Below are positions 2,863-56,742 of a stretch of DNA of 62,885 nucleotides, piece after piece; position 1 is the first letter of the stretch, and each line of letters opens with the position of its first letter. The stretch comes from Microscilla marina ATCC 23134. GTDB taxonomy: Bacteria > Bacteroidota > Bacteroidia > Cytophagales > Microscillaceae. The DNA lies in the NCBI RefSeq assembly GCF_000169175.1, contig NZ_AAWS01000053.1, forward strand, positions 1 through 62,885, read 5' to 3'. The position numbers and the translations under genes were made by a program. Under the pieces are notes generated by a model, which saw only the letters and a program-made list of their open reading frames with translations, was not told the origin of the DNA and made no database searches.

Positions 2863-3283
2863 TTATCTTCTTTTACCCACAGCGATAATGTCAAAAAAGC
2901 CTCCACTGCCTTTTTCACCCATTGATATCGGCATTACTCCATTCCATTTTTCTATAGCTTTTAACTGTGATTTTTATAAGTTGTTGGAAATCAATGTGAT
3001 ACGAAAGTGTAGTTACCTGTGAACCGAATCTACAGCAGTTTGCTGTGATGAGCTCAACGCAGTTAAACAGGGTCTAGCACCGATATTCATCGGTATCTAA
3101 GGACTTGCGACTTGTCGCTTAAAGCTTGCTCCCTGTCTGGGCTTTTAACTGAATCAATTGGTCACTTACCGATTCACACAATAGTTCTTGAGACCTTGCC
3201 TGAGCCTTGGCAATTTCTATTGGTGCACTGGCTTGTTCTGCTTCAGTTTTAATCCGATTCAGGTCATTCTTTACTTTTAAGCG
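2863..3283 (-). pseudogene. 3' fragment of SPFH/prohibitin gene, interrupted by repeat A
   Basis: This stretch matches the last roughly 250 bp of the intact prohibitin gene at 4095-4961. It retains the stop codon region, lacks about 24 bp near 3227 (equivalent to about 4276-4299), and has lost all upstream coding sequence. At 2968-3151 it is split by a 184-bp copy of repeat family A. It is a by-product of the tandem duplication that made the two lipoprotein genes. It cannot encode a working protein. Confidence 0.85.
2957..3151. repeat. Repeat family A, copy A1 (insertion with exact ends)
   Basis: The intact prohibitin gene reads ...TATAGCTTTTAGCTGAATC..., while here GCTTTTAACTG (2957-2967) is followed by 184 extra bases that end in a second GCTTTTAACTG (3141-3151). 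Modules in order: m1 TGATTTTTATAAG..., m2 CTGTGATGAGCTCAACGCAG (hairpin), m3 ACCGAT-ATTC-ATCGGT (hairpin), m4 GCGAC-TT-GTCGC (hairpin), m5 CTCCCTGTCTGGGC. The flanking direct repeat may be a target duplication or a shared element end. Confidence 0.85.
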
Positions 3284-3295
3284 AAATGTTATGGA

Positions 3296-3994
3296 CTAAT
3301 CTCTGGTAAATGCTTTTACATATTTACCATCTTTATAAGAGATGATATTATCTGATTTACCATAAGTCATATAGACAAATGACTCATTTTTGAGAACAAA
3401 AGATTCACTGGGGTCATACATCTCTATTTTACCTGGAGGTTGTAGTCTAAGCCCCAGTCCTAAACTTGCTTTGCCCTCAATTTTACCTTCGTCCGACACT
3501 TTAATTGCCTCATAGCCATCATCAGTTTTATGAAATATCATCAAACGTGCTTCGTTGGCTTTGTTTATAAAAAAACCAGCACAATCTTCTTTACCGTCGC
3601 CATTAAAATCTCCCTTTACTACAATATCCTTTTCATATATAATGGCGGTATCACCTGGATCTACTACTTTCTTGGCATCATTACTCAACCATTTCTCACG
3701 AGTTATTAGCGCCCAGCCTTTCATATTGGCTTGCATGTATTTGTAAAGCTCAGGCGCGAGTAATACCTCATCGGCAGTAAAGCCATTGGGCTCATCGCCT
3801 CCTGTATATCCTGTAGAGGAAGGGTTTGCCTTGGTGCCTGTAGTATCACTATTTTGTTGGTTACCTTCATTGTTTGGGGTAGTGTTGCTAGAGGTGGTAT
3901 CTGTATTTTCAGTGTTTCCACCTTCTTTAGCGCCTCCACAACTTGTACAAACAGCAAGTAAAATGCACAATGTCAGTATGTTAAGATAGTTCAT
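3296..3994 (-). CDS. Lipoprotein with low-complexity linker, paralogue 2
   Basis: A 232-residue paralogue of the protein at 2052-2762. The signal peptide ends in LLAVCTSCGG, then a Thr/Ser/Asn-rich linker, then the conserved domain with KGDFNGDGKEDCAGFF. The tail diverges after about residue 195. It lies directly downstream of the prohibitin gene in the same direction, separated by a terminator, so this is probably the ancestral position and the other copy the derivative. Function unknown. Confidence 0.8.
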   Translation of the reverse strand: MNYLNILTLCILLAVCTSCGGAKEGGNTENTDTTSSNTTPNNEGNQQNSDTTGTKANPSSTGYTGGDEPNGFTADEVLLAPELYKYMQANMKGWALITREKWLSNDAKKVVDPGDTAIIYEKDIVVKGDFNGDGKEDCAGFFINKANEARLMIFHKTDDGYEAIKVSDEGKIEGKASLGLGLRLQPPGKIEMYDPSESFVLKNESFVYMTYGKSDNIISYKDGKYVKAFTRD

Positions 3995-4024
3995 AAGATT
4001 GTTTGATTTTTGATAAAATAAAAA

Positions 4025-4053
4025 AACAGCAAAAGAGTTTCTCTTGCTGCTTT
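4025..4053 (-). terminator. Terminator of the prohibitin gene
   Basis: CAGCAA and TTGCTG form the core of a stem with inner AGAG/CTCT, followed on the minus strand by a long T run. It sits between the prohibitin stop (4095) and the lipoprotein start (3994). Confidence 0.65.
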
Positions 4054-4094
4054 AATTTAATCAATGTGATGATCTTTCAATACCGATTCAAATT

Positions 4095-4961
4095 TTATCT
4101 TCTTTTACCCACAGCGGTAATGTCAAAAAAGCCTCCACTGCCTTTTTCTCCCATCGATACGGGCATTACTCCATTCCATTTTTCTATAGCTTTTAGCTGA
4201 ATCAATTGATCGCTTACCGATTCACGCAATAGTTCTTGAGACCTTGCCTGAGCCTTGGCAATTTCTATTTGTGCATCGGCTTCCCCTTTGGCTTTAGCCT
4301 TGGCTTGCTCTGCTTCGGTTTTAATCCGGTTCAGGTCATTTTTAGCTGTCAAAGCGCGTTGTTCGGCAATTTGTTTTTTCTCAATGGCATCGTTAAAGTT
4401 GGGCGAAAACTTAAAATCTACAATAGAAAAATCAGTGACAATGATATTGCTTTTTGCCAAACGTTTTTTGATATAAGTAAACACATCCTGCTTTACCTTA
4501 GGGCGTGACGTGATGAGTTGTTCGGCGTTGTAGCGTGCTGTAGCAGATTTGATAGACTCTTGCACAGTAGGTTGAATAATGGTGTGTTGGTAGTCCATGC
4601 CCAGGTCTTGGTAAATCACGTTGGCTTTTTCTTTAGACAAATAAAAATTGAGGGCAACTTTAGAAGTCACCGTTTGTAAGTCTTTAGATGAAGCGGTTGC
4701 GTTTGCTTCCATTTTTTGGATTCGTACATTTAGTTTTACTACTTTCGTCCGAAACGGCATGACAGTATGAATGCCCTCACCCAAAATGTGTTTTTGTACT
4801 GCACCAAAGTGAGTAACTACTCCCACATAGCCCGAAGGCACCGTTTTAACCACCGAAAAAAGGCTGAATATTAGAAATAATACCAGTACTCCTACGGCTA
4901 CTTTTAATCCATTACTTCTCAGTGCTGAAGCTGCGGCGTTTGTTTTACCAGATTTACTCAT
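4095..4961 (-). CDS. SPFH/Band 7 (prohibitin or HflC-like) membrane protein
   Basis: A 288-residue protein with a short hydrophilic N-terminus, one transmembrane segment (about residues 20-43, VAVGVLVLFLIFSLFSVV), then the SPFH core starting TVPSGYVGVVTHFG. A long Ala/Lys/Glu-rich helix at about 195-255 (AEQRALTAKNDLNRIKTEAE) is predicted coiled coil. Proteins of this family form ring or cage oligomers at membrane microdomains and often associate with FtsH-type proteases; that role is inferred here. Length fits the family. Downstream are the two lipoprotein paralogues; upstream is a copy of repeat B. Confidence 0.9.
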   Translation of the reverse strand: MSKSGKTNAAASALRSNGLKVAVGVLVLFLIFSLFSVVKTVPSGYVGVVTHFGAVQKHILGEGIHTVMPFRTKVVKLNVRIQKMEANATASSKDLQTVTSKVALNFYLSKEKANVIYQDLGMDYQHTIIQPTVQESIKSATARYNAEQLITSRPKVKQDVFTYIKKRLAKSNIIVTDFSIVDFKFSPNFNDAIEKKQIAEQRALTAKNDLNRIKTEAEQAKAKAKGEADAQIEIAKAQARSQELLRESVSDQLIQLKAIEKWNGVMPVSMGEKGSGGFFDITAVGKRR

Positions 4962-5010
4962 GTTGTATAGGTTTAGGGTTATTTACAGTTTTATATAATC
5001 AATACTCCGC

Positions 5011-5218
5011 AGTGATTTTAGTCAAAGTTGTTTGCTGGTTCTCAGTTATTTACGAATTTAAAAACTATTTAATTGGGTGTTTGGGCGTAAAACCGACACA
5101 CTTTTAAAAATAAATTGAGTAAGCAATCTTAATATAAAATACTGGTTTACAGCATTTAACAAGGTAAACATTTACTCGTATCAGCTACCGACTATCGACT
5201 AAATACTATGGACTATTG
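5011..5218. repeat. Repeat family B, copy B1
   Basis: 208 bp closely matching 32059-32266 with no net length change. It starts AGTGATTTTAGTCAAAG and ends with the CTATCGACTATCGACTAAAT / CTATGGACTATTG segment. It fills most of the 293-bp space between the prohibitin gene and the LAS peptidase gene. Confidence 0.85.
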
Positions 5219-5255
5219 ATAATATTAATCAATTTTAAGCATAAATGATATCTTT

Positions 5256-6092
5256 TTAATAGACACTTACGTGCAAATGGTCGTCGTGTCGTACTGCTTG
5301 ACATCCATGAAAACCAATTTTGGCATAATTTACCCCCCAACGGGTTTTTAGGTAGGGCTCCATATACATTACTTGTACCTGTGGTTGAAACGCGAATAAT
5401 TGCATCATTTTACGTGTTCGTGGTACGTCAATGTCAATATTCTTTTGAAGCCATTTGGGGTATATTCTTCGTAGAATATTGTACTGCCAAAAACCTTGTT
5501 GAGCGCATATTTTTGCCACATTATACTCTCCTTTTCGGGGTGTTTCGCAACCTCCATACCCTATCAGGCTTTTGGCAGTTTGCGGTAGATATTTTTGGGT
5601 AGTGGCATCTTTATACAAAAAAGCAAGGTCTATTTTTTTTCCGTCATTATGACTCAAGTGTGGCCAAAGTGGGTATCCTTTTTTGAATGGAAAGTTAGCA
5701 TCCATATACGCAATGATGGTAGCAGGATATTGTTTTCTTAGTTGTTTGCTTACAGTCTGCAATATATGTATTAGTTGTGGGCGCACGTAGTGTCGGTTGC
5801 ATAGCCAGGTAAAAGTGTTTAAAGGCTTGATACCTGCGTGGCTGTTGATGGGCAGGGGAACTCTGCCAAAGTAGCGGGCAATTGGAGGCAAAACCAATAA
5901 GATGATGGCTAAATAACTAACAAAGTGTATACCTATGTTTAAGAGGTGTTTTTTCCAACGGGTGCTAAAAGAGCGTGTGAGTAGGGGAACTATGGGCAGG
6001 AGTAATAAATAGATAAGCCCTCCTATTTGAGTAAATAAGGTAAGCAGGGCTGCAGTGAGCAGGTATCCTATGTATTTTAGTAGTTTGATCAT
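5256..6092 (-). CDS. Membrane-anchored LAS-type (VanY/MepA-like) metallopeptidase candidate
   Basis: A 278-residue protein. The first 75 residues are hydrophobic with two or three membrane segments. The soluble part carries SHNDGKKIDL (His148, Asp155) and near the C-terminus HDDHLHV (His272, His274). The HxxGxxxD plus HxH arrangement is the zinc and catalytic signature of LAS peptidases, which cut peptidoglycan stem peptides or crosslinks. No homologue was searched, so the assignment rests on the motif. Activity on the periplasmic face of the inner membrane is inferred from the anchor. It lacks the usual cleavable signal peptide. Confidence 0.65.
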   Translation of the reverse strand: MIKLLKYIGYLLTAALLTLFTQIGGLIYLLLLPIVPLLTRSFSTRWKKHLLNIGIHFVSYLAIILLVLPPIARYFGRVPLPINSHAGIKPLNTFTWLCNRHYVRPQLIHILQTVSKQLRKQYPATIIAYMDANFPFKKGYPLWPHLSHNDGKKIDLAFLYKDATTQKYLPQTAKSLIGYGGCETPRKGEYNVAKICAQQGFWQYNILRRIYPKWLQKNIDIDVPRTRKMMQLFAFQPQVQVMYMEPYLKTRWGVNYAKIGFHGCQAVRHDDHLHVSVY

Positions 6093-6282
6093 CTACCTGA
6101 AATTAAAATTTATCTGAATACAATTGTGTTGACTTATAGCAATGTACAAAGATTATACGGTTTGCTTGCCCAAACAGTTATGTAACATTGGTAGCCAAAG
6201 CAGACAATTTATTACAGTTGAATAAGACTTTTGCGGCATGTTTTTTAGGAAGCAGTGTGGGCACGCAATAAGGAGCCGTGTA

Positions 6283-6696
6283 TTAACTGATCGTTTCTTT
6301 TACCGAGCCCACCAACCATTGCAAGGCATCTTCTTCGTTGGTAAAATACTGAGATGGAATAAGTGGGGTTTGCTGGGCTGACTGAAAGATAAGCTCGGCA
6401 CTGATGACCGTGGCACTTTTATTTACATTTATTTTTTTAAAAAGATTGAGCAATTGTTCTTGTTGCCAGGTTTGGAGGTCAGACGAAATCTTGAATTTAT
6501 TTTGGGCGTTATTGAAGAGCCAATAATCGGGCGAATACTTTTCTACAGTTTTGATCACATGGGTCAACTCTTTTTTATAAACTGCCTCTTGTTGGAGAGT
6601 GGTTTCGGGCAATGCTACCATTTTTAAGAGTGAATGTCTGGCATCGAAATAAACGGTATTGAAGCTACTTGAATATATTTTTTGGAAGTTATACAT
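6283..6696 (-). CDS. Small SpoIIAA/STAS-like protein
   Basis: A 137-residue soluble protein with no signal peptide or membrane segment. The pattern resembles SpoIIAA-like domain proteins common in Cytophagales: an early strand with NTVYFDARHSLLKM, a central PDYWLFNNAQNKFKIS strand, and a helical C-terminus ending EEDALQWLVGSVKE. The family assignment is tentative and no active-site residue can be named. It is a separate transcription unit with about 185 bp on each side. Confidence 0.55.
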   Translation of the reverse strand: MYNFQKIYSSSFNTVYFDARHSLLKMVALPETTLQQEAVYKKELTHVIKTVEKYSPDYWLFNNAQNKFKISSDLQTWQQEQLLNLFKKINVNKSATVISAELIFQSAQQTPLIPSQYFTNEEDALQWLVGSVKETIS

Positions 6697-6882
6697 GGTG
6701 TCAGCAAATGGTTTTGTGGTTAACCATATACAAAACTAACGTTTAGTTAAGAAATTAGTTGATTCATTACATTAAGGAATTATCAATTTTATCTCAATAC
6801 GCCATTATTCTTAGCAGGGGGAATAGGTAGCATCTATTGAGGCAAATAAATGCTACCAAAAAGCTTTTGTTAGGCAAGAGAA

Positions 6883-8061
6883 CTATTTCATAACAGGCGC
6901 TTTCTCAAAGACTGCATTTTTGTCAAACAGCAACCTGTAAGTCGTGTGTGTTTTTATAATTTTAAAACCAAACAGGCGACACATTTTTACCATAGTGGTA
7001 TTAAAATCCCCGATCCAGTTTAGCTCAAGGTTTTTGTACTTATAGTGAGGCAACCAACCTGTACACCTTCCCCAAGATACTGCCAGCGCAGTTTCTACAC
7101 CTTTTCCCTGAAAGTCGGGCACCACCCCAAATACCAAACCCAATGCTGTATCACAAACCCCACGGTTTTTGTAATACAAAAACTTAAGTTTGCCCAAAAG
7201 GTTGAGCTTTCCATTGACATACTTAAAAATGTGATTGACCTCAGGCACCATGACAAACATACCAATGGGGCGATCGTTGTGATAGCCAAACCATACCAAT
7301 TCTTCTTCGAGAATGGGTTTCATTTGTGCCACTGTAGCCCTGGCGCGTTCTTTGTCCATTTTGTCTACTCCACTGTGGTTTGCCCAGGCTTGATTGTAAA
7401 TCTCTCTTAAGTCGTCAGTGTATTTATCCAGGTGTTTTTTAACCAATGGCTTAAATGTGTACTCTTTTTGTGGGATAATCCTGTCGGCTAATTTAACCAA
7501 TCGTGCTGGAAAGTCAGCCTGAGTACCTATAATCCTACCAAAAGTGTATTGCTGAAAATAATCTTTAAACCCATACGCTTCGAAAAAAGGTTTGTAATAA
7601 GGGAAGTGGTAGTTCATTCCATAATTTTGAGGAATATAACCTTCGGTAAGCAAGCCCCAAAATTTTTCGCGGTTTCCAAAATTAATTGGGCCATCCATGG
7701 CTTCCATTCCTTGGGCTTGATTCCATTCTTTGCAAGCATCAAATAACTTAAAAGCCACCCCCTGATTGTCTATGCACTCAAAAAAACCCATTCCACCAGT
7801 AGCTTGTTTGTTTCCCTTATCAGAGGTTTGTGTATTTACAAAAGCCGCTACCCTTCCTATGGTTTTACCTGCATCATCTTGCAAAATCCAGCGTATGCAT
7901 TTTCCATGGTTAAAATAAGGGTTTTCATTAGGATCAAATACCGCCGCTACTTCTTTGTCTATAGGGCGAATCCAGTTTTTGTCATTTTTATACAATCTTA
8001 CAGGAAGCTGTATAAACTCCTTTGCCAGTCTTTTATCGTTTTTTACTTCTAACAATCTCAT
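6883..8061 (-). CDS. GNAT-fold N-acetyltransferase family protein
   Basis: A 392-residue cytosolic protein. It opens with RLLEVKNDKRLAKEFIQLP and NKNWIRP-like features typical of a large GNAT-related family. The acetyl-CoA-binding motif is visible near residue 320 as VVPDFQGKGVETAL (Q/R-x-x-G-x-G/A type). The middle contains GPINFGNREKFWGLL and NYHFPYYKPFFEAYGF, conserved in this family. Substrate unknown. The gene is alone, and its 5' side faces a strong hairpin and the IS110 element. Confidence 0.75.
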   Translation of the reverse strand: MRLLEVKNDKRLAKEFIQLPVRLYKNDKNWIRPIDKEVAAVFDPNENPYFNHGKCIRWILQDDAGKTIGRVAAFVNTQTSDKGNKQATGGMGFFECIDNQGVAFKLFDACKEWNQAQGMEAMDGPINFGNREKFWGLLTEGYIPQNYGMNYHFPYYKPFFEAYGFKDYFQQYTFGRIIGTQADFPARLVKLADRIIPQKEYTFKPLVKKHLDKYTDDLREIYNQAWANHSGVDKMDKERARATVAQMKPILEEELVWFGYHNDRPIGMFVMVPEVNHIFKYVNGKLNLLGKLKFLYYKNRGVCDTALGLVFGVVPDFQGKGVETALAVSWGRCTGWLPHYKYKNLELNWIGDFNTTMVKMCRLFGFKIIKTHTTYRLLFDKNAVFEKAPVMK

Positions 8062-8169
8062 TCCTGTTCGGGCTCAATGTATACTATGATTTGAAAAGGC
8101 GAAAGATAATAATTCTTTAGGCTAAAGAAATTAAGAGCGAAGAGATTTTGATAAGATAGGTGACTTCAG

Positions 8170-8207
8170 GTCGTAAGCAAGGCAGTATTTTATACCTTGC
8201 TTATGAC
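8170..8207. terminator. Strong hairpin between GNAT gene and IS110 element
   Basis: GTCGTAAGCAAGG (8170-8182) pairs with CCTTGCTTATGAC (8195-8207), 12 of 13 bp, loop of 12. It could terminate minus-strand transcription leaving the IS110 transposase gene before the GNAT gene. T runs are modest. Confidence 0.5.
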
Positions 8208-8291
8208 TTGGGTTCTTTTCTAATAGTACTTAGTCAATACTTACTTTTAACTACCGATTTCATAAGTACCCTGTTTATCAGCACTTTAATT

Positions 8292-9671
8292 TTATATTTT
8301 TTCTAGTTTCAAGCCCATTTTTCGGGCTTGTCTTTCTAAGGCTTTGAGTTTTCGTTTTCTGTTTTGCTCTTGATATTCCTCTGCTGTTTTTCCCCGATAT
8401 GGTGTTTTGTATTTCATCATATTGTAAAAAATAGTAGCTAGTTTTCGGGCAACTGCCTGAACAGCAATCCCTGAACCTTTTCTAAGACTTAGGTTCCGAT
8501 ATAAGGCTCCCAAGTGACATTTGCTATTATTGAGCCCCCAAGCAGCTAATTTAAATGCTTGATGTATCCGACTGTTATTCATATTTTTAAAATGCCCCAA
8601 GAGTTTATCTCCTGATATTTTTCTTCTGGGTGCAAGCCCTGCCCAACTCGTGAAATGTTTAGCATTTTTCCAATGACTCATATCAATTCCTGTTTCTGCT
8701 AAAATGTTGATAATCGTATTTTCTGAAAAACCATCTACTTCTGTTAAATCGACCCCAGTAATATCTTTGAGATAAGAAGCAGAATCAAATGAATATTCAT
8801 TCTTCCTCTTTGTTTTTTTTTTTACTCGGCTTTGCCAATCTTCCTTTGCCACAATTTCTCCTGTATCCCATTTATGGAGTATTTGCTCTATTTCTGTCTC
8901 ACATTCATTGATTTGTTTCAGGACAAAATCATAGGCACTAAGCGCTTGTTGGAGAGAAAATAAGTGCGCTTTACGAAAGTTCCCTTCAAGTGATAAAGTA
9001 AACTCTTCTTTGGTGGCTTTGAGTGTTTTATTATGAAGTTTTGCCAGTTCTACACTGGAGTGCTCTCCTGCTGCAATAGCACGAATAACCTTCATTCCTA
9101 GTTTACCTTCAATATCTGAAATCACATTCTGTATTTTGACATTCATCAGCTGCAAGGCTTTACCTACATGTTGCATGTGTTGCACTTTTTGCTTGGTCAA
9201 TTGTTGCCGCTGGCGTACATAGGTGCGAAACTCTCTGACATCCTGTGTAGGAATAAAAGAAGCAGGCAATAATCCATAACTATGTAATGTATGTATCCAA
9301 CTACAATCAGAAACATCACTTTTGCGTCCACTTACATTTTTAGGATAACGAGCGTTTACTAAGACCACATCAAAACCTCTGTCCTCAAGAATTTCATATA
9401 AACTTTGCCAATATATACCTGTGGCTTCCATTGCCACACTTTCTATCCCCAGTTCACTAAACCAATCTGCCATGCGATGCAAGTCTGCGGTAAAAGCACC
9501 AAAGTTTCTGATGTTATCTTTTGTCAGGTGTGGTGAAACAGCTGTATAATGTATATTGTTTGCAATATCTACCCCGGCCACTTTTAACCTAACCTTGGTT
9601 AGCTCATCAGACAAATTCACCTTTTTAGAGGCTTTGCTACTTTTTATTTTAGTCTCCGATTTTTTCATCAC
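8292..9671 (-). CDS. IS110-family DEDD transposase/recombinase
   Basis: 459 residues. The N-terminal RuvC-like DEDD domain shows VAGVDIANNIHY (first Asp), VAMEATGIYW (Glu) and NARYPKNVSGRKSDVSD (Asp pair). The C-terminal Transposase_20 domain shows LKDITGVDLTEVDGFS and FTSWAGLAPRRKISGDKLLG, which holds the candidate catalytic Ser. IS110 enzymes act with a bridge RNA encoded in the element to choose donor and target. The frame is intact and the length normal, so the element may be active. Internal linker residues are Lys-rich. Confidence 0.95.
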   Translation of the reverse strand: MMKKSETKIKSSKASKKVNLSDELTKVRLKVAGVDIANNIHYTAVSPHLTKDNIRNFGAFTADLHRMADWFSELGIESVAMEATGIYWQSLYEILEDRGFDVVLVNARYPKNVSGRKSDVSDCSWIHTLHSYGLLPASFIPTQDVREFRTYVRQRQQLTKQKVQHMQHVGKALQLMNVKIQNVISDIEGKLGMKVIRAIAAGEHSSVELAKLHNKTLKATKEEFTLSLEGNFRKAHLFSLQQALSAYDFVLKQINECETEIEQILHKWDTGEIVAKEDWQSRVKKKTKRKNEYSFDSASYLKDITGVDLTEVDGFSENTIINILAETGIDMSHWKNAKHFTSWAGLAPRRKISGDKLLGHFKNMNNSRIHQAFKLAAWGLNNSKCHLGALYRNLSLRKGSGIAVQAVARKLATIFYNMMKYKTPYRGKTAEEYQEQNRKRKLKALERQARKMGLKLEKI

Positions 9672-9699
9672 AGATTAATGCACTAAATTGAACCTTTAT

Positions 9700-9890
9700 T
9701 GAGTAAAAAGAGGGTTTGACAATAGGTTATATACATGTAATATTCTTTTAAGCGGGGTAAAGTCTCTGTCAAGACTTTCCACCATTAGGGGAATCATTGA
9801 ACCTATTTGCACCAAGCTTTTAAGCGAGCTTTAAAGCATCACTGCACTAACGGTGTCTGACAAACCCTCTTCTTTACAAATATCTATACT
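9700..9890 (-). ncRNA. Candidate IS110 bridge RNA
   Basis: Read on the minus strand, the leader upstream of the transposase folds into nested pairings: AAGAGGGTTTG with CAAACCCTCTT (outer stem, arms near 9862-9872 and 9709-9719), AATAGGTT with AACCTATT, and an inner AAAGTCT-TGACAG-AGACTTT hairpin. GCTTTAAAGC is a further self-pairing block. The enclosed length of about 170 nt matches known bridge RNAs. The words AGGTTCAAT and TTAGTGCA each occur twice in the leader. The guide loops are not identified. Confidence 0.55.
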
Positions 9891-9988
9891 ATTTGAAGTA
9901 ATCAAATAATACTGCAACTTAATAAGCTACTTGTCTTGGCTATACGAATCCTTAGGTAGTTGCCTGGGGAACAGGCAAACCTGTCGGG

Positions 9989-10112
9989 GCTTTTAACTAC
10001 GCTTTTCATAAATCACTGAAAATCAACGTGATATAAAAGTGTAGTTACTTGTGGAACAGGGTCTAGCTTGCGACTTGTCGCTTAAAGCTTGCCCCCTGTC
10101 GGGGCTTTTAAC
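9989..10112. repeat. Repeat family A, copy A2 (short form)
   Basis: Starts GCTTTTAACTACGCTTTTCA (m1), passes through GTTACTTGTGGAACAGGGTC, and ends with m4 GCGACTTGTCGC and m5 GCCCCCTGTCGGGGC, then TTTTAACT. It lacks modules m2 and m3. It shares its terminal GCTTTTAACT with the start of the next copy, so the two are in tandem. Confidence 0.8.
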
Positions 10113-10264
10113 TATGATTTTTGTAAGTCACTGAAGGTCAATGTGATATGAAAGTACAGTTTGCTGTGATGAGCTCAACACAGTTAAACAGGGTGTAACT
10201 TGCGACTTGTCGCTTGAAGCACCGATATTCATCGGCATCTAAGGACTTGCCCCCTGTGGGGGCT
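10103..10264. repeat. Repeat family A, copy A3 (modules reordered)
   Basis: m1 (CTTTTAACTATGATTTTTGT) is followed by m2 CTGTGATGAGCTCAACACAG, then m4 GCGACTTGTCGC, then m3 ACCGATATTCATCGGC, then m5 GCCCCCTGTGGGGGC. The order m4-m3 is the reverse of copies A1 and A4. It ends just before the stop codon of the OmpA-family gene. Confidence 0.8.
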
Positions 10265-10269
10265 AAGTA

Positions 10270-11154
10270 CTAATCTTTGATAGGAGAAGGATTGGTGAGT
10301 ATTCGTTTTGGGGTATTCTTTTGAATAATGGGTAATTGAGCACCTGTCTCCAGAATGGTATAACTCGACACTGTACATACCCGGCGGCGGTGGTCGTTTT
10401 GTTGAGGGTTACGTAGTTTAGGGGGCAGTTGTTCTCCTTTGCCTTCTGCGTTTATGTCAAGCATTACTTCCTTGTCAGCGTTGGCAAACTTTTGATTTAA
10501 AACTATTGACAGGTATTGTTTGATGGCTGTGGCGCGATTGAGCGATAGCAAACGGTTTTTTTCTTTACGTTGTTGGTCACTTTCCCCTTTTACAAATCCT
10601 TGTTCGTCGGCATAACCCGTAATATTGAGTTTTACTTGCATTTGTGCACGATAAACAGTCAATACTTTGTGCTTAAAATACTGGGCAAACTGGTTAAGCG
10701 ATACCACCCCAGCTGCCCTGAGTTGGGCACTGCCTACCTCAAACAACACATCAGACTTTAGTACATGTTCGGTACCATTGAGAATATGTTGGTTGGTTTT
10801 GTTAAGTAGCTGATGGGTGCTGTGTAGTGCACGTTTTATTTTCCTTATTTCATAGAGGGGCATTGCCTGGTTACTGGCAATCTGACACCGCAACTTGTGA
10901 TGGATTTTGCTCAGTTTTTTACTTACGTTATCCAATACTGGGTAAAAGTTTTTGGCTACACTATGTGGGTTGAGTTTAATCCTGCGGTCTACCAGTAGTT
11001 TGAGCTGAGCAGTTTTAGATAAATGTTGTTTGGTTTTCCAGACATACTTATCCAGTGTTTTTTGTTGGTAGCGGGCAAAGTAGGCAGAACGGCAGCTTAC
11101 CATAAGTAAAGCAACTATACAAAAATGGGCAACAACACTTATTTTTTTAGGCAT
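10270..11154 (-). CDS. OmpA-family lipoprotein
   Basis: 294 residues. The signal peptide ends in the lipobox LLMVSC. The middle (about 35-130) is helical and basic. The C-terminal OmpA-like peptidoglycan-binding domain covers about 133-262: VLFEVGSAQLRAAGVVSLNQ, then LNITGYADEQG, then LSLNRATAIKQYL and a closing NDHRRRVCTVSSY. It is predicted to sit in the outer membrane and hold peptidoglycan. It is preceded by its own intergenic region and abuts repeat A3 at its 3' end. Confidence 0.85.
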   Translation of the reverse strand: MPKKISVVAHFCIVALLMVSCRSAYFARYQQKTLDKYVWKTKQHLSKTAQLKLLVDRRIKLNPHSVAKNFYPVLDNVSKKLSKIHHKLRCQIASNQAMPLYEIRKIKRALHSTHQLLNKTNQHILNGTEHVLKSDVLFEVGSAQLRAAGVVSLNQFAQYFKHKVLTVYRAQMQVKLNITGYADEQGFVKGESDQQRKEKNRLLSLNRATAIKQYLSIVLNQKFANADKEVMLDINAEGKGEQLPPKLRNPQQNDHRRRVCTVSSYTILETGAQLPIIQKNTPKRILTNPSPIKD

Positions 11155-18963: not shown

Positions 18964-18990
18964 CTGCTGTGATGAACTCTACACAGTTAA
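18964..18990. repeat. Isolated m2 module of repeat family A
   Basis: CTGCTGTGATGAACTCTACA followed by CAGTTAA matches module m2, with CTGTG/CACAG stem ends and two substitutions. It lies immediately right of the MITE-like element. Confidence 0.5.
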
Positions 18991-20420: not shown

Positions 20421-20448
20421 ACACCGACATTCATCGGCATCTAAGAAC
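20421..20448. repeat. Isolated m3 module of repeat family A
   Basis: ACACCGACATTCATCGGCAT followed by CTAAGAAC matches module m3 (hairpin CCGA..TCGG plus ATCTAAG). It lies in the 357-bp gap between the serine hydrolase and the sortilin-like gene. The rest of that gap (20180-20420) shows nothing recognisable. Confidence 0.55.
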
Positions 20449-31630: not shown

Positions 31631-31819
31631 GTAATACGAGCAATCAACATTGCATTGAGTGTTTCAATAATCTATTCAAACGATAAATTTTGAAAGCTGT
31701 AAATACAAATGTATGTTAAAGCAACTTTTTATAAAAATTTCAACCACCTTTAATCATTAATTGTACCTTTTACAATAGTCTGCGGCATTTAGCCCATAGC
31801 CCCAACAAGGTTCTAGGTA

Positions 31820-31862
31820 CCCCCTGTTTAACTCCGTTGAGCTCATCACAGCAAACTGCTGC
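31820..31862 (-). repeat. Repeat family A fragment (m2 module, reverse orientation)
   Basis: CCCCTGTTTAACTCCGTTGA followed by GCTCATCACAGCAAACTGCT is the reverse complement of module m2 and its flanks (AGTTTGCTGTGATGAGCTCA). It is followed by a CCCGAT/ATCGGG hairpin to about 31885. The remaining sequence of 31631-31819 holds nothing I recognise. Confidence 0.65.
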
Positions 31863-32058
31863 CCCGATAAATATAAATCGGGATTTAGAAATAGATTGGG
31901 TTTATAGGCAACTAACAAACTCATAGTGTGCTTACTTTCAGTGGTTTACGAATTGGTGAGTTAAAAAAACAAAACAGCTTAGAGATAGGACAGGAGAAAA
32001 AATATATAAAGGTCTATTGTGGGGCATTTTATCTGTAGTATTCAGCCCAATATTCTGT

Positions 32059-47303: not shown

Positions 47304-47313
47304 TTGTGTTACA

Positions 47314-48047: not shown

Positions 48048-48617
48048 ATGAAACAGATTACATACTTAATGATATGCCTATGGGCAGGGTGTGCCCTGAT
48101 GTCGTGTAATAGCAATGCTCCCGAAAAACTGGACAAAGAAGATTTTACTCTGGTAAAAATACCAGGTAAATATAGTATACAAATACCCAAGTATATGAAA
48201 CGATCCATTGGACTCAATCAATATGCATCGTTGCAATACCAAAATACTACCAAAGGGATGTATGTGATTGTGATAGACGAAGATACTACAGCAAAAAAGA
48301 TATTGTCAAAAGCAATGGAGTTGAGCGGAGGATCGGTATTGAGCTATTACCGCAAACAAAAAATGGAACAGTTGGGGCAAGACCTGAAAATAAGCAAAAA
48401 GCATGACGGTAAGCTGATAAAAATAAATGGCTTAGAGGCAGAAACAGTAAACATAGATGCCAGTACTAAAGAAATAGAGACAGATGTAGCTTATTTTTTC
48501 ACTTTTATAGAAGGTAAAAAAAGCTTGTATATGTTGATGGGCTGGACGATGGCAAGCCAGCGGAAAAAATATCAAGGTACTTTTGGTCAGGTAGCCAAAT
48601 CATTTCAGGAACTGTAG
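48048..48617 (+). CDS. Lipoprotein of unknown function
   Basis: 189 residues. Lipobox CALMSC. The mature part has FTLVKIPGKYSIQIPKYM, MKRSIGLNQYASLQYQN, and a VDVAYFFTFIEGKKSLYMLMGWT strand pair, a compact alpha/beta fold that resembles PsbP-like proteins, but the match is weak. A terminator follows at 48651. Outer membrane or periplasm. Confidence 0.75.
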   Translation: MKQITYLMICLWAGCALMSCNSNAPEKLDKEDFTLVKIPGKYSIQIPKYMKRSIGLNQYASLQYQNTTKGMYVIVIDEDTTAKKILSKAMELSGGSVLSYYRKQKMEQLGQDLKISKKHDGKLIKINGLEAETVNIDASTKEIETDVAYFFTFIEGKKSLYMLMGWTMASQRKKYQGTFGQVAKSFQEL

Positions 48618-48650
48618 TTGTTTTGCGCCTGGTTTTTGAAAATTAAAAGC

Positions 48651-48682
48651 AAGCCTTGGTACCTGAACCAAGGCTTTTTTAT
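48651..48682 (+). terminator. Terminator of the 48048-48617 lipoprotein gene
   Basis: AAGCCTTGGT and ACCAAGGCTT form a perfect 10-bp stem with a 6-nt loop and TTTTTT tail. Confidence 0.85.
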
Positions 48683-48815
48683 TAGGTTGCAAATACAAAG
48701 TGGGTTTGCTATATTTAATCAAGAAATATGATTGCAGGTGTCGTTCATCACGACAATGTATTCATTCTTAGTTGCTTGCCAGCCAACACCTTTATTAAAT
48801 CAACCATTTGTGAGA

Positions 48816-51401: not shown

Positions 51402-51900
51402 GTAGCAGGGCAATTTAAACGATATTTTTGATCAATGGTTTGAAAAAATGGGCTTATTTTCTCTTTTGGAGTAAATGGTTTTAATTGATATAAAACCTTA
51501 CATCCTGTTTTTCCTTGTTCAAGAGGGAGGGCTTTGGGGTGGAGCAGCAGTTTTTTCATTGATTTTGCTCAAACTATATAAGTTTCCACAAAGTACCTGT
51601 ACTTATAAGTTTGTCTGTAGTGTGGATGGTTACGATGCGACCTCAGACGTAAGTTTATATGGGTTTTGGTTTGATTTTCAGGGTTTTTTCGGAACCAGCA
51701 GCCCTTCATTCCTTTTGGGTGACTCACCCAATCAACCAAGTAAATATAGTGTACATTGCTATGAGTTGTAACTAACTGTTAGTCAGTTTTTTATGCTACA
51801 TTCAATTTGTTACTTTATGAACTTTTACATAACTGCTAAAATCATTACATTGTTATGGAAGTGATAAACAGATTGAAAAAAACACAATTTTAAATATTCA
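51402..51900. other. Intergenic stretch with no supported gene
   Basis: A/T-rich. A plus-strand ORF at 51475-51771 has no family features and is not called. The rest leads to the TonB-receptor promoter. Confidence 0.5.
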
Positions 51901-51916
51901 CATAAATTATGTAATC

Positions 51917-51948
51917 TTTTGACCATATATGTTATTATACTATATTTG
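51917..51948 (+). promoter_or_regulatory. Bacteroidota-type promoter of the TonB-receptor gene
   Basis: TTTTG at 51917-51921 and TATATTTG at 51941-51948 are 19 bp apart. They match the -33 TTTG and -7 TAnnTTTG boxes of the primary Bacteroidota sigma factor. The predicted start is near 51955, 55 nt before the ATG. Confidence 0.6.
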
Positions 51949-52009
51949 AAATTAGGAATAGTACAAAATTTTACAATTTATACACAAAAACAAATTAAAT
52001 TTTTAGTTT

Positions 52010-54835
52010 ATGATGAAACATTTACGTAAACTTCTGTTTTCTATTTTTGTTTGCCTGTTATCTATTGCTTATGCCCAGGCACAAGTAACTTTGTCGGGGG
52101 TAGTAAAAGATAACAAGACCGGAGAAGGTCTGGTTGGGGTAAACATTGTTGTAGATGGAACAGTACAAGGAACCACCACCAGGGCAGATGGTTCTTTTAG
52201 TATGTCTGTAAGCCAACCAACACCTTTTAAACTCAAAATTTCTTACATAGGTTATGCTAGTCAAACTGTTGATATTACCGGAAGTAATAGTAACATTCAG
52301 GTAAGTCTCAAAGAAAGTAACAGTCTTATTGGAGAAGTAGTTGTATCTGCCTCAAGGGTGGAGGAAAAAATTCTGGAGTCTCCGGTAACGATTGAAAAGA
52401 TGGACATCATTGCCATTAAAAATACGGCGGCACCTGATTTTTATGATGGACTTGCCAACCTCAAAGGAGTACACATAAATAAGGGTAGTATGAACTTCGC
52501 TTCAATTAATACCCGTGGTTTTGCTACTATATCCAATGTGCGTATGGTACAGTTGATGGATGGAATGGACAATGCTGCGCCTTTGTTAAACTTCCCTACG
52601 GGTAATGTGGTAGGTATCTCGGAGCTAGACATGGAAAGCATGGAACTGGTACCAGGTGCTGCTTCGGCATTGTATGGTCCCAATGCCTTTAATGGAATTT
52701 TGATGATGAATAGTAAAAGCCCTTTTGAATACCAAGGCCTTAGTGTATTGGTAAAAGGAGGGGTGGCCACTTCAAACACTGCCAAAGACGGTGCTACTGC
52801 TTATGGCAATCAGCCATTATATAACACTTCTATCCGTTATGCCAAATCTTTCCTTAAAGACAAGCTTGCTTTTAAGGTAAACTTCTCTTTGTCTCAGGCA
52901 CAAGATTGGCGGTCTAACGATTATGTAACGCACCGTACCGATGTAACTACGCTAAGAAATGAAACCCAGCCTACCATTGGTGATCCTTCCTTTGATGGTT
53001 TGAACAGCTACGGAGACGAAGTGCCTATTGTAGCTCCTTTTGGAACAGCTTCGTTTGCCAATACAGTGGCATTGGGTGTTATTAACAACCCTGCTTTTGC
53101 CGCTACTTTGGCAAGTCAGTTTGGAGGCAATACCGCACTGGCACAAGGGGTGGTAGCCAATGGTCTGCAGTCTTTAGGAACGGTACCATTGCGAAGGTTA
53201 GGCTACAAAGAAGAAGAAATGTTAGAGTCTTTTGATGCCCGCAGTATGAAAATTAGCGCAGCTTTGCATTATCGTATCACACCTAAGATAGAAGCCAGTT
53301 TCAGTTTCCGTCGTGGTTCTGGTTCTTCGGTATACCAGGGAGGTGAGCGTTATGCTTTGAGAGACTTTACTCAAACTTATTACAAGGCAGAGGTAAAAGG
53401 GGCTAACTTTTTTGCCAGAGCGTATATGTCTGAAACCGATGACGGAGATTCTTACAATATGACGGCTATGGGTCTTTTGACTACTTCTACGCTTGCACCT
53501 ACTTATATTGGTACTTATGCCAGTGCTTTATTGCCTACTTTATTGGCAGGCAATACGCCTACCGCTGAACAGGTTGCTGCAGCACAAACTGCTGCTTATG
53601 CTGCCGTACAACCGGGTACAAGCAACGGTTTGGCAGAGTCTACTTTGAAAACAGTAAGAGAGGGTGTTTTTCAGAGAGGGGGCGCTGGGTTTATAGATAA
53701 TTCCCGCCTTTACCATGCAGAGTTCAATTATAACTTTAGCGATATGATTGATTTTGCCGAGATTCAGGTAGGGGGTAACTACCGTCAGTACGACTTGTTT
53801 TCTGATGGGACTGTATTTAACGAAAACCGAGGGAATGGCACTTTTGAACGGATTAAAATTGGTGAATTTGGTGTATATACTCAGGTTTCTAAAAAACTGT
53901 TGAAAGATCGCTTAAAAATAACTGCTTCTATTCGTTTTGATAAAAACGAAAACTTTGACGGGCAAATCACGCCACGTGCTTCTTTGGTATATTCGGCGGG
54001 TAAAGAACGTGAGCATAACTTCAGAGCTTCATTCCAGACTGGTTTCCGTAACCCTGACACTCAGGCACAATTTATTTACTTCCCAAGTACTTCAGGTATT
54101 TTATTGGGTAGTACCAAAGCCAACGCCGAACAGTATGGTTTGTTTCAGGGAGGCGCCACAGATAGTAAAGGCAATACTGTAAACCTTGAGTTTATCCAAC
54201 CAGAGCAACTGACCGCTTTTGAAGTAGGGTACAAAGGATTGATTGCCAATAAGGTATTGATTGATATCAATGGATACTTTAACCAATACAACAATTTTAT
54301 GGACCAGCAGACAGTGTTTGCCAAAAATGCAGGTACTGCCCCTACCGGAAGCTGGGCAGCCGGAACTGCTTTCCGTCCTTATATCAACTCTAAAGTACCA
54401 GTAAACTCACAGGGTCTGGGAATTGGCGTAAGCTACAAATTGCCCAAAAACTTTATTGTAACGGGTAACTATAGCGCAGCGCTTTTCAGTGCTGATATTG
54501 ATCCGGACGACGAATTTCAGATTGCGTTTAACACGCCAGGCGATCGTTACAAACTGGGTCTCATCAACCGTGGTGGACTGATTAAAAACTTAGGTTTTTC
54601 TATCAACTACCGTTGGCAAGACCGTTTCTTGTGGAGATCTGCCTTTGGTCACGGGTATATACCTGCTTATGGAGTGTTAGATGCTCAGGTAAACTACAAA
54701 ATCAAATCTTTGAAGTCTATCGTGAAGTTAGGTGCGTCTAACATTGGCAACAATGATTATCGCACCAGTTTTGGTGCCCCTTTCATTGGTCAAATGTATT
54801 ATTTGTCTATCACGTTTGATCAGGCGCTTAACTAA
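52010..54835 (+). CDS. TonB-dependent outer-membrane receptor
   Basis: 941 residues. Signal peptide ends YAQAQ. CarboxypepD_reg-like N-terminal domain (about 26-108: LSGVVKDNKTGEGLVGVNI), plug domain (about 118-240: VVSASRVEEKILESPVTIEK), then a large beta barrel ending YLSITFDQALN. Imports a ligand using the inner-membrane TonB-ExbBD energy. It is followed by an SGNH lipoprotein 97 bp later, so the pair may handle one substrate. Ligand unknown. Has its own promoter (51917-51948). Confidence 0.94.
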   Translation: MMKHLRKLLFSIFVCLLSIAYAQAQVTLSGVVKDNKTGEGLVGVNIVVDGTVQGTTTRADGSFSMSVSQPTPFKLKISYIGYASQTVDITGSNSNIQVSLKESNSLIGEVVVSASRVEEKILESPVTIEKMDIIAIKNTAAPDFYDGLANLKGVHINKGSMNFASINTRGFATISNVRMVQLMDGMDNAAPLLNFPTGNVVGISELDMESMELVPGAASALYGPNAFNGILMMNSKSPFEYQGLSVLVKGGVATSNTAKDGATAYGNQPLYNTSIRYAKSFLKDKLAFKVNFSLSQAQDWRSNDYVTHRTDVTTLRNETQPTIGDPSFDGLNSYGDEVPIVAPFGTASFANTVALGVINNPAFAATLASQFGGNTALAQGVVANGLQSLGTVPLRRLGYKEEEMLESFDARSMKISAALHYRITPKIEASFSFRRGSGSSVYQGGERYALRDFTQTYYKAEVKGANFFARAYMSETDDGDSYNMTAMGLLTTSTLAPTYIGTYASALLPTLLAGNTPTAEQVAAAQTAAYAAVQPGTSNGLAESTLKTVREGVFQRGGAGFIDNSRLYHAEFNYNFSDMIDFAEIQVGGNYRQYDLFSDGTVFNENRGNGTFERIKIGEFGVYTQVSKKLLKDRLKITASIRFDKNENFDGQITPRASLVYSAGKEREHNFRASFQTGFRNPDTQAQFIYFPSTSGILLGSTKANAEQYGLFQGGATDSKGNTVNLEFIQPEQLTAFEVGYKGLIANKVLIDINGYFNQYNNFMDQQTVFAKNAGTAPTGSWAAGTAFRPYINSKVPVNSQGLGIGVSYKLPKNFIVTGNYSAALFSADIDPDDEFQIAFNTPGDRYKLGLINRGGLIKNLGFSINYRWQDRFLWRSAFGHGYIPAYGVLDAQVNYKIKSLKSIVKLGASNIGNNDYRTSFGAPFIGQMYYLSITFDQALN

Positions 54836-54932
54836 CATTAAGCTTGCCAAAGGTTGTTTGTGCTTAGTATTGGCAACCTGCTTTTCAATTATTCAGATTC
54901 AAAAACATTCAAAATATATTAAGATTAAAACA

Positions 54933-56279
54933 ATGATAGTTATGAGAAAAAACCCTATCATTTTAGTTCTTATCGGACTATTGTTTATAGGCTTTACCTC
55001 GTGCAAAGAGGTAACCCCTTCGCCTACTCCTACATTGCCTACTGCAGCATCGGCCGGAACCGCTGATTTTAGCAAATACATAGCGGTGGGTAATTCGCTT
55101 ACCGCTGGGTTGACCAATGGTGGGTTATACAACGATGGTATGCAATATGCTTTTCCAAACTTGTTGGCAGGGCAGTTTGCCCAGGTAAGTGGCGGTGCTT
55201 TTGTACAGCCTACTTTTGGTGCAGGCAAAGAAAATGGCTCAGGCTTTTTGAAACTTACTGATCTAAAGCCTACCATTGTGAACGAAACCAGTAACCTGGC
55301 AATCATAGGGGTGGGTGCCGATGGTAAAACCAATTTATTGGAAAAATACACCGGAGACTTGAATAACCTGGGCATACCGGGTATCAAAGTCGCTGAAATT
55401 ACCACAGCAGGTTATGGCTTTAACAACGCAGCTGGTTTCAACAACTACTTTGAGCGTTTGCTGGGCACCAGCGATGCTACCAGTAATTATGTAGACTTTG
55501 TGACAGCTAAGTCTTCAGGGGTGACGTTTTTTAGTTGCTGGATGGGAGGCAACGATGTACTTAGGTATGCAGTAGATGGAGGCGCTGCTCCGGAGTTTAT
55601 AACCCCTACTGCTATGTTTGAAACAAACTACAAGAGTTTATTAGACAAGTTTGGGAGTGCCAAAGGCATATTGATTACTATTCCTAAGCTTACTTTTGCT
55701 GCTCATTTTACTACGGTAACATTAGTGAGCCTACAAGCTGCAGTAAAAGCGGGTGGGGGACCAGACAATGCTGATATTTACATTACTGAAGGCACCGGGG
55801 CTACAGTGCGTAAAGCTACTATAGAAGATTTCTTCTTGTTGGGTAAACAAACCAATTATGCTTCTTTGGGTAAGACAGATGCTGGAGCAAACAATGGTTT
55901 TCCTTATGGGTTACACCCTAGCAATCCTTTGGGTACTGACCTGGTATTGGATAAAACAGAAGCTGCTGCTTGTAACACTGCTGTTGACGCATACAATGCT
56001 ATTATCAAAACAGAGGCAGACACCAGAGGCTTGGCCTATTTGGATATTAATGTAACACTGGGGCAAGCTGCCACTGCTGATGGAGTCACACTCAATGGGA
56101 TTACTTACCGTACAACCTTTATTCAAGGAGGTATTTTTAGTTTAGATGGTATTCATTTGACTCCTGCCGGAAATGCGGTAGCTACCAATGAAATGATCAA
56201 GGTGATCAATGCTAAGTATGGTTCTACTATTCCGGAGTTGAACAATACCCTGTACAGCACTTTGATTTTATCTAAGTAA
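54933..56279 (+). CDS. SGNH/GDSL hydrolase lipoprotein
   Basis: 448 residues from ATG 54933 (ATG 54942 is equally plausible). Lipobox IGFTSC. Block I AVGNSLTAGL, a GNS variant of GDS with the Ser kept, block III WMGGNDVL, and block V LDGIHLTPAGN with Asp and His. Large lipases or esterases of this type next to TonB receptors are frequent in Bacteroidota; the substrate could be a lipid or glycan ester. It follows the receptor in the same direction and is followed by a terminator. Confidence 0.85.
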   Translation: MIVMRKNPIILVLIGLLFIGFTSCKEVTPSPTPTLPTAASAGTADFSKYIAVGNSLTAGLTNGGLYNDGMQYAFPNLLAGQFAQVSGGAFVQPTFGAGKENGSGFLKLTDLKPTIVNETSNLAIIGVGADGKTNLLEKYTGDLNNLGIPGIKVAEITTAGYGFNNAAGFNNYFERLLGTSDATSNYVDFVTAKSSGVTFFSCWMGGNDVLRYAVDGGAAPEFITPTAMFETNYKSLLDKFGSAKGILITIPKLTFAAHFTTVTLVSLQAAVKAGGGPDNADIYITEGTGATVRKATIEDFFLLGKQTNYASLGKTDAGANNGFPYGLHPSNPLGTDLVLDKTEAAACNTAVDAYNAIIKTEADTRGLAYLDINVTLGQAATADGVTLNGITYRTTFIQGGIFSLDGIHLTPAGNAVATNEMIKVINAKYGSTIPELNNTLYSTLILSK

Positions 56280-56315
56280 GGAATGGTGAAAAATAACTTT
56301 TTTTAAAAACTACCT

Positions 56316-56349
56316 GGGTTGTCGGTAAATTATCGGCAACCCTTTTTTT
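56316..56349 (+). terminator. Terminator of the TonB receptor-SGNH lipoprotein operon
   Basis: GGGTTGTCGG pairs with TCGGCAACCC through a long stem with wobble pairs (56316-56342), followed by seven T residues. 37 bp past the SGNH stop. Confidence 0.8.
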
Positions 56350-56554
56350 ATTTTTATACATTTGCAGCCACAAACTAATTGTCCAATGTTTTTGATGCCC
56401 ATAAAGTCAAACTGCCTATTATTTACTCTATAAAAATATGTTGAAGCTTTAATAAGGTAAGTAATATGAACAACGAAGATGACAGTGAAATGCTATGTAA
56501 ACTATTAGTTCTCAATATTTTGCTGGTACTCTATTATTTACATATAGCTATCGA

Positions 56555-56742
56555 CTTTTAACTACGCTTTTCATAAATCACTGAAAATCAACGTGATATA
56601 AAAGTGTAGTTACTTGTGAACCGAATCTACAGCTTGCTGTGATGAGCTCAACGGAGTTAAACAGGGTCTAGCACCGATATTCATCGGTATCTAAGGACTT
56701 GTGGCTTGTCGCTTGAAGCTTGCCCCTGCGGGTGCTATTAAC
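56555..56742. repeat. Repeat family A, copy A4
   Basis: Modules in the order m1 (CTTTTAACTACGCTTTTCAT), GAACCGAATCTACAGC, m2 CTGTGATGAGCTCAACGGAG, m3 ACCGATATTCATCGGT, m4 GTGGCTTGTCGC, m5 GCCCCTGCGGGTGC, ending ATTAAC. Same order as A1. Its left flank TATAGCTATCGA resembles the end of repeat B. Confidence 0.8.

What the first reader, a model, noticed from the sequence alone, without database searches (positions are those of the whole stretch)
2957..56742. Modular palindromic repeat family A with reordered modules
At least four long copies (2957-3151, 9989-10112, 10103-10264, 56555-56742) and several fragments (18964, 20421, 31820 reversed) are built from the same five short modules, four of which are self-pairing. 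Module order and content differ: A2 lacks m2 and m3, A3 has m4 before m3. Copies share TTTTAACT at both ends and can lie in tandem. This is not a standard IS or REP unit and may be a mobile RNA or DNA cassette.
Basis: seen in the sequence. Interest (0 to 1): 0.72.

Follow-up and report, generated by a model that had tools for sequence, protein, structure and literature searches.

The report
Nested hairpin mobile elements in Microscilla
A marine bacterium's genome carries many tiny gene-free DNA elements that land at a short, precise site, stack up in rows, and themselves collect even smaller hairpin inserts; their ends match those of an RNA-guided jumping gene beside them, which may be what moves them.

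Summary
Units grow in steps by insertion of other palindromic units. The commonest, m3 (26 nt, 253 copies), sits at G^CTTG: 105 of 171 copies have an uninterrupted counterpart, against 0-1 when the cut is moved by 13 nt. One orthologous locus shows an empty site with only CT doubled. Right flanks fit CT-WTNRACTA, which the unit's own left end also matches, so tandem arrays follow. The IS110 (RNA-guided recombinase) copy at 8244-9989 shares these ends and sits at the left end of A-type units. Best reading: non-autonomous IS110-type elements moved in trans, carrying nested REP-like hairpins whose mover is unknown. Against it: the sister genome has many H1 copies but not this IS110. New variant of a known kind.

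The parts
2958..3141 (+). A1: H1a hairpin, m2, m3 (3078-3103), m4, end stem; CT at 2958-2959 and 3142-3143
9990..10104 (+). A2: base unit of 115 bp without m2 and m3 (H1a, g, m4, end stem); tandem with A3
10105..10262 (+). A3: H1a (3' arm damaged), m2, m4, then m3 (10220-10245) at AAG^CTTGCCCC; right flank CT-AAGTACTA
56555..56734 (+). A4: H1a, m2, m3 (56672-56697), m4, end stem; right flank CT-ATTAACA
8244..9989 (-). IS110 element that abuts the left CT of A2; its two ends resemble the left and right ends of the A family
8292..9671 (-). IS110 transposase gene, 459 aa (PF01548 + PF02371; NF033542 243 bits against a cut-off of 140)
9700..9870 (-). structured non-coding region upstream of the transposase, candidate bridge RNA (fold z -3.9); TTAAAAG, found next to the core on the left side of target and donor, occurs twice
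   Evidence: guides not resolved
31790..31970 (-). degenerate family member: H1 remnant, mB, m2
   Evidence: limits approximate
   Evidence: limits approximate
20422..20447 (+). solitary degenerate m3 (3 mismatches)
18965..18990 (+). solitary m2-like tail

Best explanation
Family A is a non-autonomous, site-specific mobile DNA element of IS110 type. Shown by sequence: the unit CT|TTTAACTA-hairpin-stem-CCTGTCGGGG|CT stands at CT-WTNRACTA and, at the one locus with an orthologous empty site, only CT is doubled. Its left end fits the same motif, so units can stand at the left of older ones and form tandem arrays, some of unlike members. Shown: a second layer of palindromic inserts (m3 above all, at G^CTTG; also m2, mX, mB) lies inside the units and in other repeats and makes unit lengths step up (117, 143, 160, 186, about 215 counting both CT). 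Inferred: the IS110 recombinase with its bridge RNA, whose circle junction resembles those of the A units, cuts and joins them in trans. Inferred with less support: m3 moves like a REP, as a single-stranded hairpin, by an enzyme not identified.
For: (1) Orthologous empty site: G000 L036 carries 214 bp (both CT counted). The joined flanks TATTTTCATTAC-CT-ATGTACTCCAAATAG match G001 TATTTTCACTACTTATGTACTTCAAATAG at full length with 3 mismatches; the right flank runs on without mismatch for the rest of the compared stretch, the left flank diverges further out. (2) Right flanks of 44 3' ends not followed by a recognised H1 in the G000 sample: A 40, C 41, T 37, A 33 of 44 at positions 5-8 after CT (the pattern itself required CT, and at least 2 of the 44 are followed by the IS end or A3). 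(3) The IS110 copies whose left flank was read in full and is not another IS (C53, C44, C67, C11: 4 of 4) abut the left end of an A-type unit; a fifth (C98) is cut by the contig end. IS-IS tandems have the same junction. (4) IS left-end interior against A2: 0 of 5000 letter shuffles reach the score. (5) 22-nt circle junctions of 34 of 34 complete G000 units differ from that of the IS by 1-5 bases, 12 of 12 in G001 by 2-4. The patterns that picked them build in part of this; out-of-context stretches fitting the same patterns give 1-5 in 819 of 20,000 pairings. (6) PMC11208160 (passages): IS110s insert as circles around a core, and a 22-bp donor works with the RNA in trans. PMC11187229 (passages): a mini-IS with 29- and 16-bp ends moved. 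(7) m3: 105 of 171 copies have an ungapped uninterrupted counterpart; controls. (8) H1 covariation: 86.0% of cells paired against 76.0% shuffled, 103 double-change cells against 39.1, 0 of 500. (9) 1 of 81 elements has its midpoint in an ORF of 120 aa or more, against 1207 of 1620 random points.
Against: G001 has at least 150 H1 hits (cap) but only one IS110 domain hit. That one is 36% identical to the window's protein and, read by eye, lies inside an A-like repeat rather than sharing its ends. One clean orthologous empty site for a whole unit was found among 11 syntenic pairs with 106,646 aligned bases; other loci in those pairs show larger composites or rearranged repeats. The IS right end matches the H1d arm only weakly (11 of 1000 shuffles as good). 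Bridge-RNA guides were not resolved. The ends are not terminal inverted repeats. In the covariation test two of five measures were not unusual (96 and 149 of 500 shuffles as high). For m3 no mover was found: 0 of 8 RAYT-like loci carry m3 in the flanks held.
Confidence: 0.6

Rival explanations
1. The A family is an independent REP/MITE-like family with its own unknown mover. The IS110 merely uses its left end as target, as IS621 and other ISs use REPs, and picked up A sequence as its own left end.
For: ISs, among them IS110 members, are known to target REPs (PMC1525189 abstract; PMC11208160 passages). The window IS sits at the same A site in four loci. The sister genome keeps many H1 copies without this IS. 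Three of four copies of another IS110 group lie in another repeat.
Against: The likeness reaches inside the IS on the left, the complete circle junctions are near that of the IS, and the one empty site shows only CT doubled, as expected of IS110.
Confidence: 0.27
2. The modules are parts of one old long element, and the variants arose by deletion and recombination rather than by insertion.
For: Some copies are truncated (A3 H1 arm, fragments); H1 types are combined with the same downstream modules.
Against: m3 stands at several sites of one host unit and in other repeats with different flanks; 105 of 171 copies have uninterrupted counterparts; lengths cluster in steps.
Confidence: 0.05
3. Conserved RNA elements (terminators, processing or regulatory hairpins) kept by selection; dispersal is incidental.
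For: Covariation in H1, intergenic placement, strong folding of A2 (z -4.8).
Against: Copy number, tandem arrays, the empty site and different units at the same orthologous site speak for mobility; no Rfam match in the window. A secondary RNA role is not excluded.
Confidence: 0.08

Closest known systems
IS110 family insertion sequences with bridge RNA / seekRNA (IS621, ISEc21, ISPpu9/10)
   Same: Core dinucleotide, no longer target duplication seen, fixed orientation, insertion next to palindromic repeats, tandem copies at a regenerated site
   Different: No gene and no recognised bridge RNA in the unit; 115-220 bp; many copies
Bacterial MITEs (e.g. MITECca01 of IS982, MITEPye1 of IS1182; NEMIS and RUP by name only)
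   Same: Short, gene-free, intergenic, ends shared with a resident IS
   Different: No terminal inverted repeats; the putative parent is an RNA-guided IS110; carries nested smaller inserts
REP elements, REPINs and BIMEs with RAYT transposases
   Same: m3 is a 26-nt hairpin unit with more than 100 copies at a short fixed site; REPs inserted within palindromes are reported (PMC3733652, passages)
   Different: No constant GTAG or CGTC tag; no RAYT-like gene found flanked by m3; layered inside other elements
BOX elements and Neisseria intergenic mosaic elements (recalled, not tested)
   Same: Intergenic repeats composed of optional subunits
   Different: Here m3 is an independent insertion with empty-site counterparts

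Membership tests
IS110 family (the transposase gene 8292-9671) | DEDD domain PF01548 plus PF02371, and NF033542 above its cut-off | tested here: met
IS110 family (the transposase gene 8292-9671) | structured non-coding end with guides matching target and donor | tested here: inconclusive
   fold z -3.9; TTAAAAG twice; right guides not found
IS110-type non-autonomous element (family A) | insertion doubles only a core dinucleotide | tested here: met
   one orthologous empty site
IS110-type non-autonomous element (family A) | ends shared with a resident IS110 | tested here: met
   G000. In G001 no IS110 with these ends was found
IS110-type non-autonomous element (family A) | mobilised in trans by the IS110 recombinase | not testable with these tools
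   needs an in vivo assay
classical MITE | terminal inverted repeats | tested here: not met
   ends are TTTAACTA and CCTGTCGGGG
REP element (m3) | 20-40 nt palindrome, >100 copies | tested here: met
REP element (m3) | constant GTAG or CGTC tag at the foot of the hairpin | tested here: not met
   GTAG stands before some copies as part of the target, but AAG (29), GAG (11) or GGG (9) of 112 before others; on the other strand the foot reads CTTAG
REP element (m3) | RAYT gene flanked by the same repeat | tested here: not met
   0 of 8 RAYT-like loci in the flanks held
known RNA families | Rfam match in the window | tested here: not met
   0 matches at gathering thresholds

The most novel reading that the evidence does not exclude
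A bridge-RNA-guided recombinase builds and spreads arrays of gene-free modular hairpin cassettes in trans. The cassettes rebuild their own target at one end, so arrays grow in one direction, and they serve as landing pads for a second, separate class of 26-nt mobile hairpins that insert exactly at G^CTTG by an unknown enzyme.
Probability: 0.4. Interest if true: 0.78.

Novelty: new variant of a known kind. Interest (0 to 1): 0.62.

Why it matters
If right, RNA-guided IS110 recombinases can support large families of tiny passive elements, which I did not find described in the literature searches listed. The natural variants of the 22-bp junction would be a ready-made catalogue of donors for bridge-RNA recombination. 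The m3 unit, 26 nt with uninterrupted counterparts for 105 of 171 copies, is a clean system for asking how REP-like hairpins move without a linked transposase.

Tried and rejected
Rejected: chance (reversed-pattern controls 0); decay of one long element; the RAYT-like genes found as movers of m3 (they have other palindromes or none, no m3 in 8 loci); the IS200-type Y1 genes (no m3 in L009-L013, about 1.5 kb on each side; in the 20-kb pieces L024 and L053 an m3 lies some kilobases away). Other transposase genes inside an H1 loop: one search returned one short double unit and no gene, but it also missed the window's own IS, so it is weak evidence. Integron attC was considered because of the arrays; its end motif was compared from memory by eye only and does not fit. 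A viral home for m3: 0 exact matches in IMG/VR. Covariance model R1 in relatives: besides the two Microscilla genomes, two same-family genomes gave one hit each at E 2.9e-4 and 5.4e-4, taken as chance (4 of 17 genomes with a hit). A guide-by-guide bridge-RNA reading was tried by eye and left unresolved.

Limits: the G000 sample is 1,238,804 bases, biased towards hits (and the window); the G001 sample was first 389,062, later 1,189,062 bases (total). Module patterns miss diverged copies (A1 was missed because of its loop). For one search I aligned 65 of 135 H1 candidates, chosen to span the types; one search used 96 of 135 (39 without the terminal motif dropped). In one search small shifts of the m3 cut (3-5 nt) still gave 68-96 of 171, and shifts of 26 and 40 nt gave 4 to 24, so that test places the site to within a few bases; the exact boundary comes from reading the flanks.
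Full report
WHAT WAS CHECKED. The four copies and the fragments exist. In element coordinates the copies are A1 2958-3141, A2 9990-10104, A3 10105-10262 and A4 56555-56734. A2 and A3 are directly joined. None of the four overlaps an ORF of 100 aa or more. With A1 as query the own genome (G000, 9.77 Mb in 135 contigs) gives 56 matches, 40 of 404 candidates scored.

WHERE IT LIVES. Gene content is that of Bacteroidota (my reading of the families). A1 as query hits 2 of 37 genomes, the own one and G001 of the same genus. G001 corresponds to a record named uncultured Microscilla sp. (contig lengths agree with those), so I place the window in Microscilla. The m3 unit occurs 253 times in G000 and 233 times in G001 with up to 3 mismatches, and in 2 of 291 genomes of the order, both of this genus (up to 2 mismatches). 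Exact m3+CTTG in the GTDB collection: 64 stretches, all in the uncultured Microscilla (the own genome may be left out there). IMG/VR: none.

ANATOMY. The base unit is CT-TTTAACTA, hairpin H1 with a conserved loop around CTGAAAATCA, then CCTGTGGAACAGGG ... m4 ... CCCCTGTCGGGG. H1 comes in four sequence types. Types a-c begin CT-TYTAACTA; type d begins CT-TCYATCTA, mostly lacks the end stem and is a more distant relative. In the clusters the G000 sample has 44 a, 11 b, 10 c and 17 d (recount). On 65 aligned members the stem holds by paired changes: 86.0% of cells paired against 76.0% in shuffles, 103 double-change cells against 39.1, covariation score 0.298 against 0.152, each 0 of 500; sliding the partner by 1-3 columns drops pairing to 29-55%. 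The counts of pairs with changes on both sides and of pair types were not unusual (96 and 149 of 500). Own arms pair better than arms of other types: means 11.7-12.7 of 14 against 8.8-10.7, with 9.5 for shuffled letters.

STEPWISE GROWTH. Complete units in the G000 sample (34) have lengths 117 (seven), 118, 142-148 (eight), 156-160 (five), 169-170 (two), 182-187 (seven), 200 and 214-220 (three), counting both CT. The steps correspond to m3 (26), m2 (about 43), both, and mX (31). Architectures are many: 67 clusters in the G000 sample, 11 with more than one H1, some arrays joining different H1 types, for example a-c-c-a in L027 and a-a-a-b in L141. m2 replaces the simple CCTGTGGAACAGGG. Its tail GAGCTCAACGNAGTTAA also occurs in several other repeats, one of them about 165 bp from an IS200 gene (L053). 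Of 12 mX copies in the G000 sample 10 follow CCTAG and 9 lie after an m2 tail; all 5 mB copies lie within m2. m2, mX and mB were not tested by empty sites as m3 was.

THE m3 UNIT. It is CACCGATATNCATCGGTATCTAAGGA. In the G000 sample of 1.24 Mb, 112 copies are preceded by G in 102 and have A at -2 in 95; they are followed by CTTG in 88, CTCG in 12 and CTTA in 5. They lie in several host repeats. In A units m3 occurs before m4, after m4 (A3) and inside m4; one G001 unit holds three copies at three G^CTTG sites (L164). Of 171 copies with flanks from both genomes, 105 have at least one ungapped uninterrupted counterpart (at least 85% identity, at least 13 nt on each side). Control: with the 26-nt cut moved by 13 nt the count is 1 and 0, by 26 nt 4 and 4, by 40 nt 17 and 24 (m3 copies 40 nt apart occur), at random positions 0 of 171; moved by only 3-5 nt it is still 68-96, so the test locates the site to a few bases. 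In one paralogous pair (L034:3286 and L044:14263) the 26 nt stand at GAG^CTC. I see no target duplication beyond an ambiguous single C.

HOW THE A UNIT INSERTS. At an orthologous locus G000 carries a 214-bp stretch (L036, both CT counted) and G001 (L166) an empty site: TATTTTCATTAC-CT-ATGTACTCCAAATAG against TATTTTCACTACTTATGTACTTCAAATAG, equal length, 3 mismatches, the right flank then continuing without mismatch. Further left the flanks are no longer alike. So only CT is doubled, and the sequence right of it belongs to the target. Right flanks of 44 3' ends not followed by a recognised H1 read CT-WTNRACTA (A 40, C 41, T 37, A 33 of 44 at positions 5-8); the search pattern required the CT, and at least two of the 44 are followed by the IS end or by A3. 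The 16 in G001 agree at positions 5-8 (15, 15, 13, 14) but often have G at position 1. The unit's own left end, CT-TTTAACTA, fits the motif, which explains tandem arrays. At another orthologous locus the same site holds one H1c unit in G000 and two H1a units in G001 (L026/L167). At two further loci one species lacks a larger composite (L145/L164, L048/L273), and at L038/L168 the repeats are rearranged.

THE IS110 LINK. The gene at 8292-9671 is an IS110 recombinase. Its element spans 8244-9989 and abuts A2. The four copies whose left flank was read in full and is not another IS copy sit at the left end of an A-type unit; a fifth is cut by its contig end; IS-IS tandems have the same junction. 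Inside the IS, the left end (GTAGTTGCCTGGGGAACAGGCAAACCTGTCGGGG) resembles the 3' half of A2: 0 of 5000 shuffles score as high. The right end resembles an H1d arm, less strongly (11 of 1000). The 22-nt junction that each complete unit would form as a circle differs from that of the IS by 1-5 bases in 34 of 34 in G000 and by 2-4 in 12 of 12 in G001. The patterns that select the units build in part of this likeness; stretches out of context that fit the same patterns give 1-5 differences in 819 of 20,000 random pairings, from 302 starts but only 20 ends. Published work says that a 22-bp donor works with the bridge RNA in trans (PMC11208160, passages) and that a mini-IS with 29- and 16-bp ends moves (PMC11187229, passages). 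The region upstream of the gene folds well (z -3.9) and holds TTAAAAG twice, as expected for two left guides; I could not identify the right guides.

WHAT SPEAKS AGAINST. G001 has one IS110 domain hit, a 36% relative that by eye lies inside an A-like repeat, yet it has at least 150 H1 hits. The parent may be lost or missing from that assembly of 760 contigs, or may be something else. ISs, IS110 members included, are known to insert in REPs (PMC1525189, abstract; PMC11208160, passages), and three of four copies of another IS110 group here lie in another repeat. Hence the rival that the IS only uses A as target stays open. For m3 I found no mover: the RAYT-like genes (8 loci read) have other palindromes or none, and no m3.

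COMPARISON. As a mechanism this works like a trans-mobilised IS110; as a class it is MITE-like but without terminal inverted repeats. m3 works like a REP but lacks a constant GTAG or CGTC tag and a linked RAYT. Insertion of REPs into palindromes is known (PMC3733652, passages). My searches for IS110 with MITE, for IS110 with non-autonomous and miniature, and for Microscilla marina with palindromic repeats gave 20, 10 and 3 papers. By titles and the starts of abstracts none is about a non-autonomous IS110 family or these repeats; of those papers I read passages of PMC9769881 (an IS982 MITE) and PMC11578231 (an IS1182 MITE). Wider searches were read as listings, apart from PMC11208160, PMC11187229 and PMC3733652 (passages) and PMC1525189 (abstract). 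I therefore call it a new variant of a known kind.

Noticed in passing
flanks of A units, e.g. L033:8953 and 9970, L164:7801, L162: Tracts with a period of about seven (GGACTATCGACTATTGACT...) lie around many A units and fit the CT-WTNRACTA target; they may be targets or footprints of repeated insertion and excision.
   Followed up: partly
L053:10140, L021:3068, L047:2412 and others: A repeat, in L053 beside an IS200 gene (Y1), carries AACCGAGCTTTTCGCGAGCTCAACGNAGTTAA, whose tail is shared with module m2.
   Followed up: partly
L283 (G000), L282 (G001); L281 (G000), L284 and L286 (G001): Two kinds of RAYT-like genes, shared by both Microscilla genomes, each flanked by its own REP-like palindromes, different from m3.
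   Followed up: partly
L080, L082, L083: A second IS110 group (350 aa) is inserted in another dispersed repeat, at GCTACGGACAAT / GCGGAACTGCCGGGG; a fourth copy (L081) lies elsewhere.
   Followed up: no
L098, about 1330 and 3320: The single IS110 found in the sister genome seems to interrupt the second stem of an A-like unit, a different site from that used by the window IS.
   Followed up: partly
G000 contigs C98 and C67 (L063, L065, L066, L070, L071): Tandem copies of the window IS110, some with broken reading frames.
   Followed up: no
window 2052-2762 and 3296-3994, minus strand: Two neighbouring proteins on either side of A1 hit the same weak Pfam family (New_glue, below cut-off), so A1 may lie in a gene duplication.
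   Followed up: no
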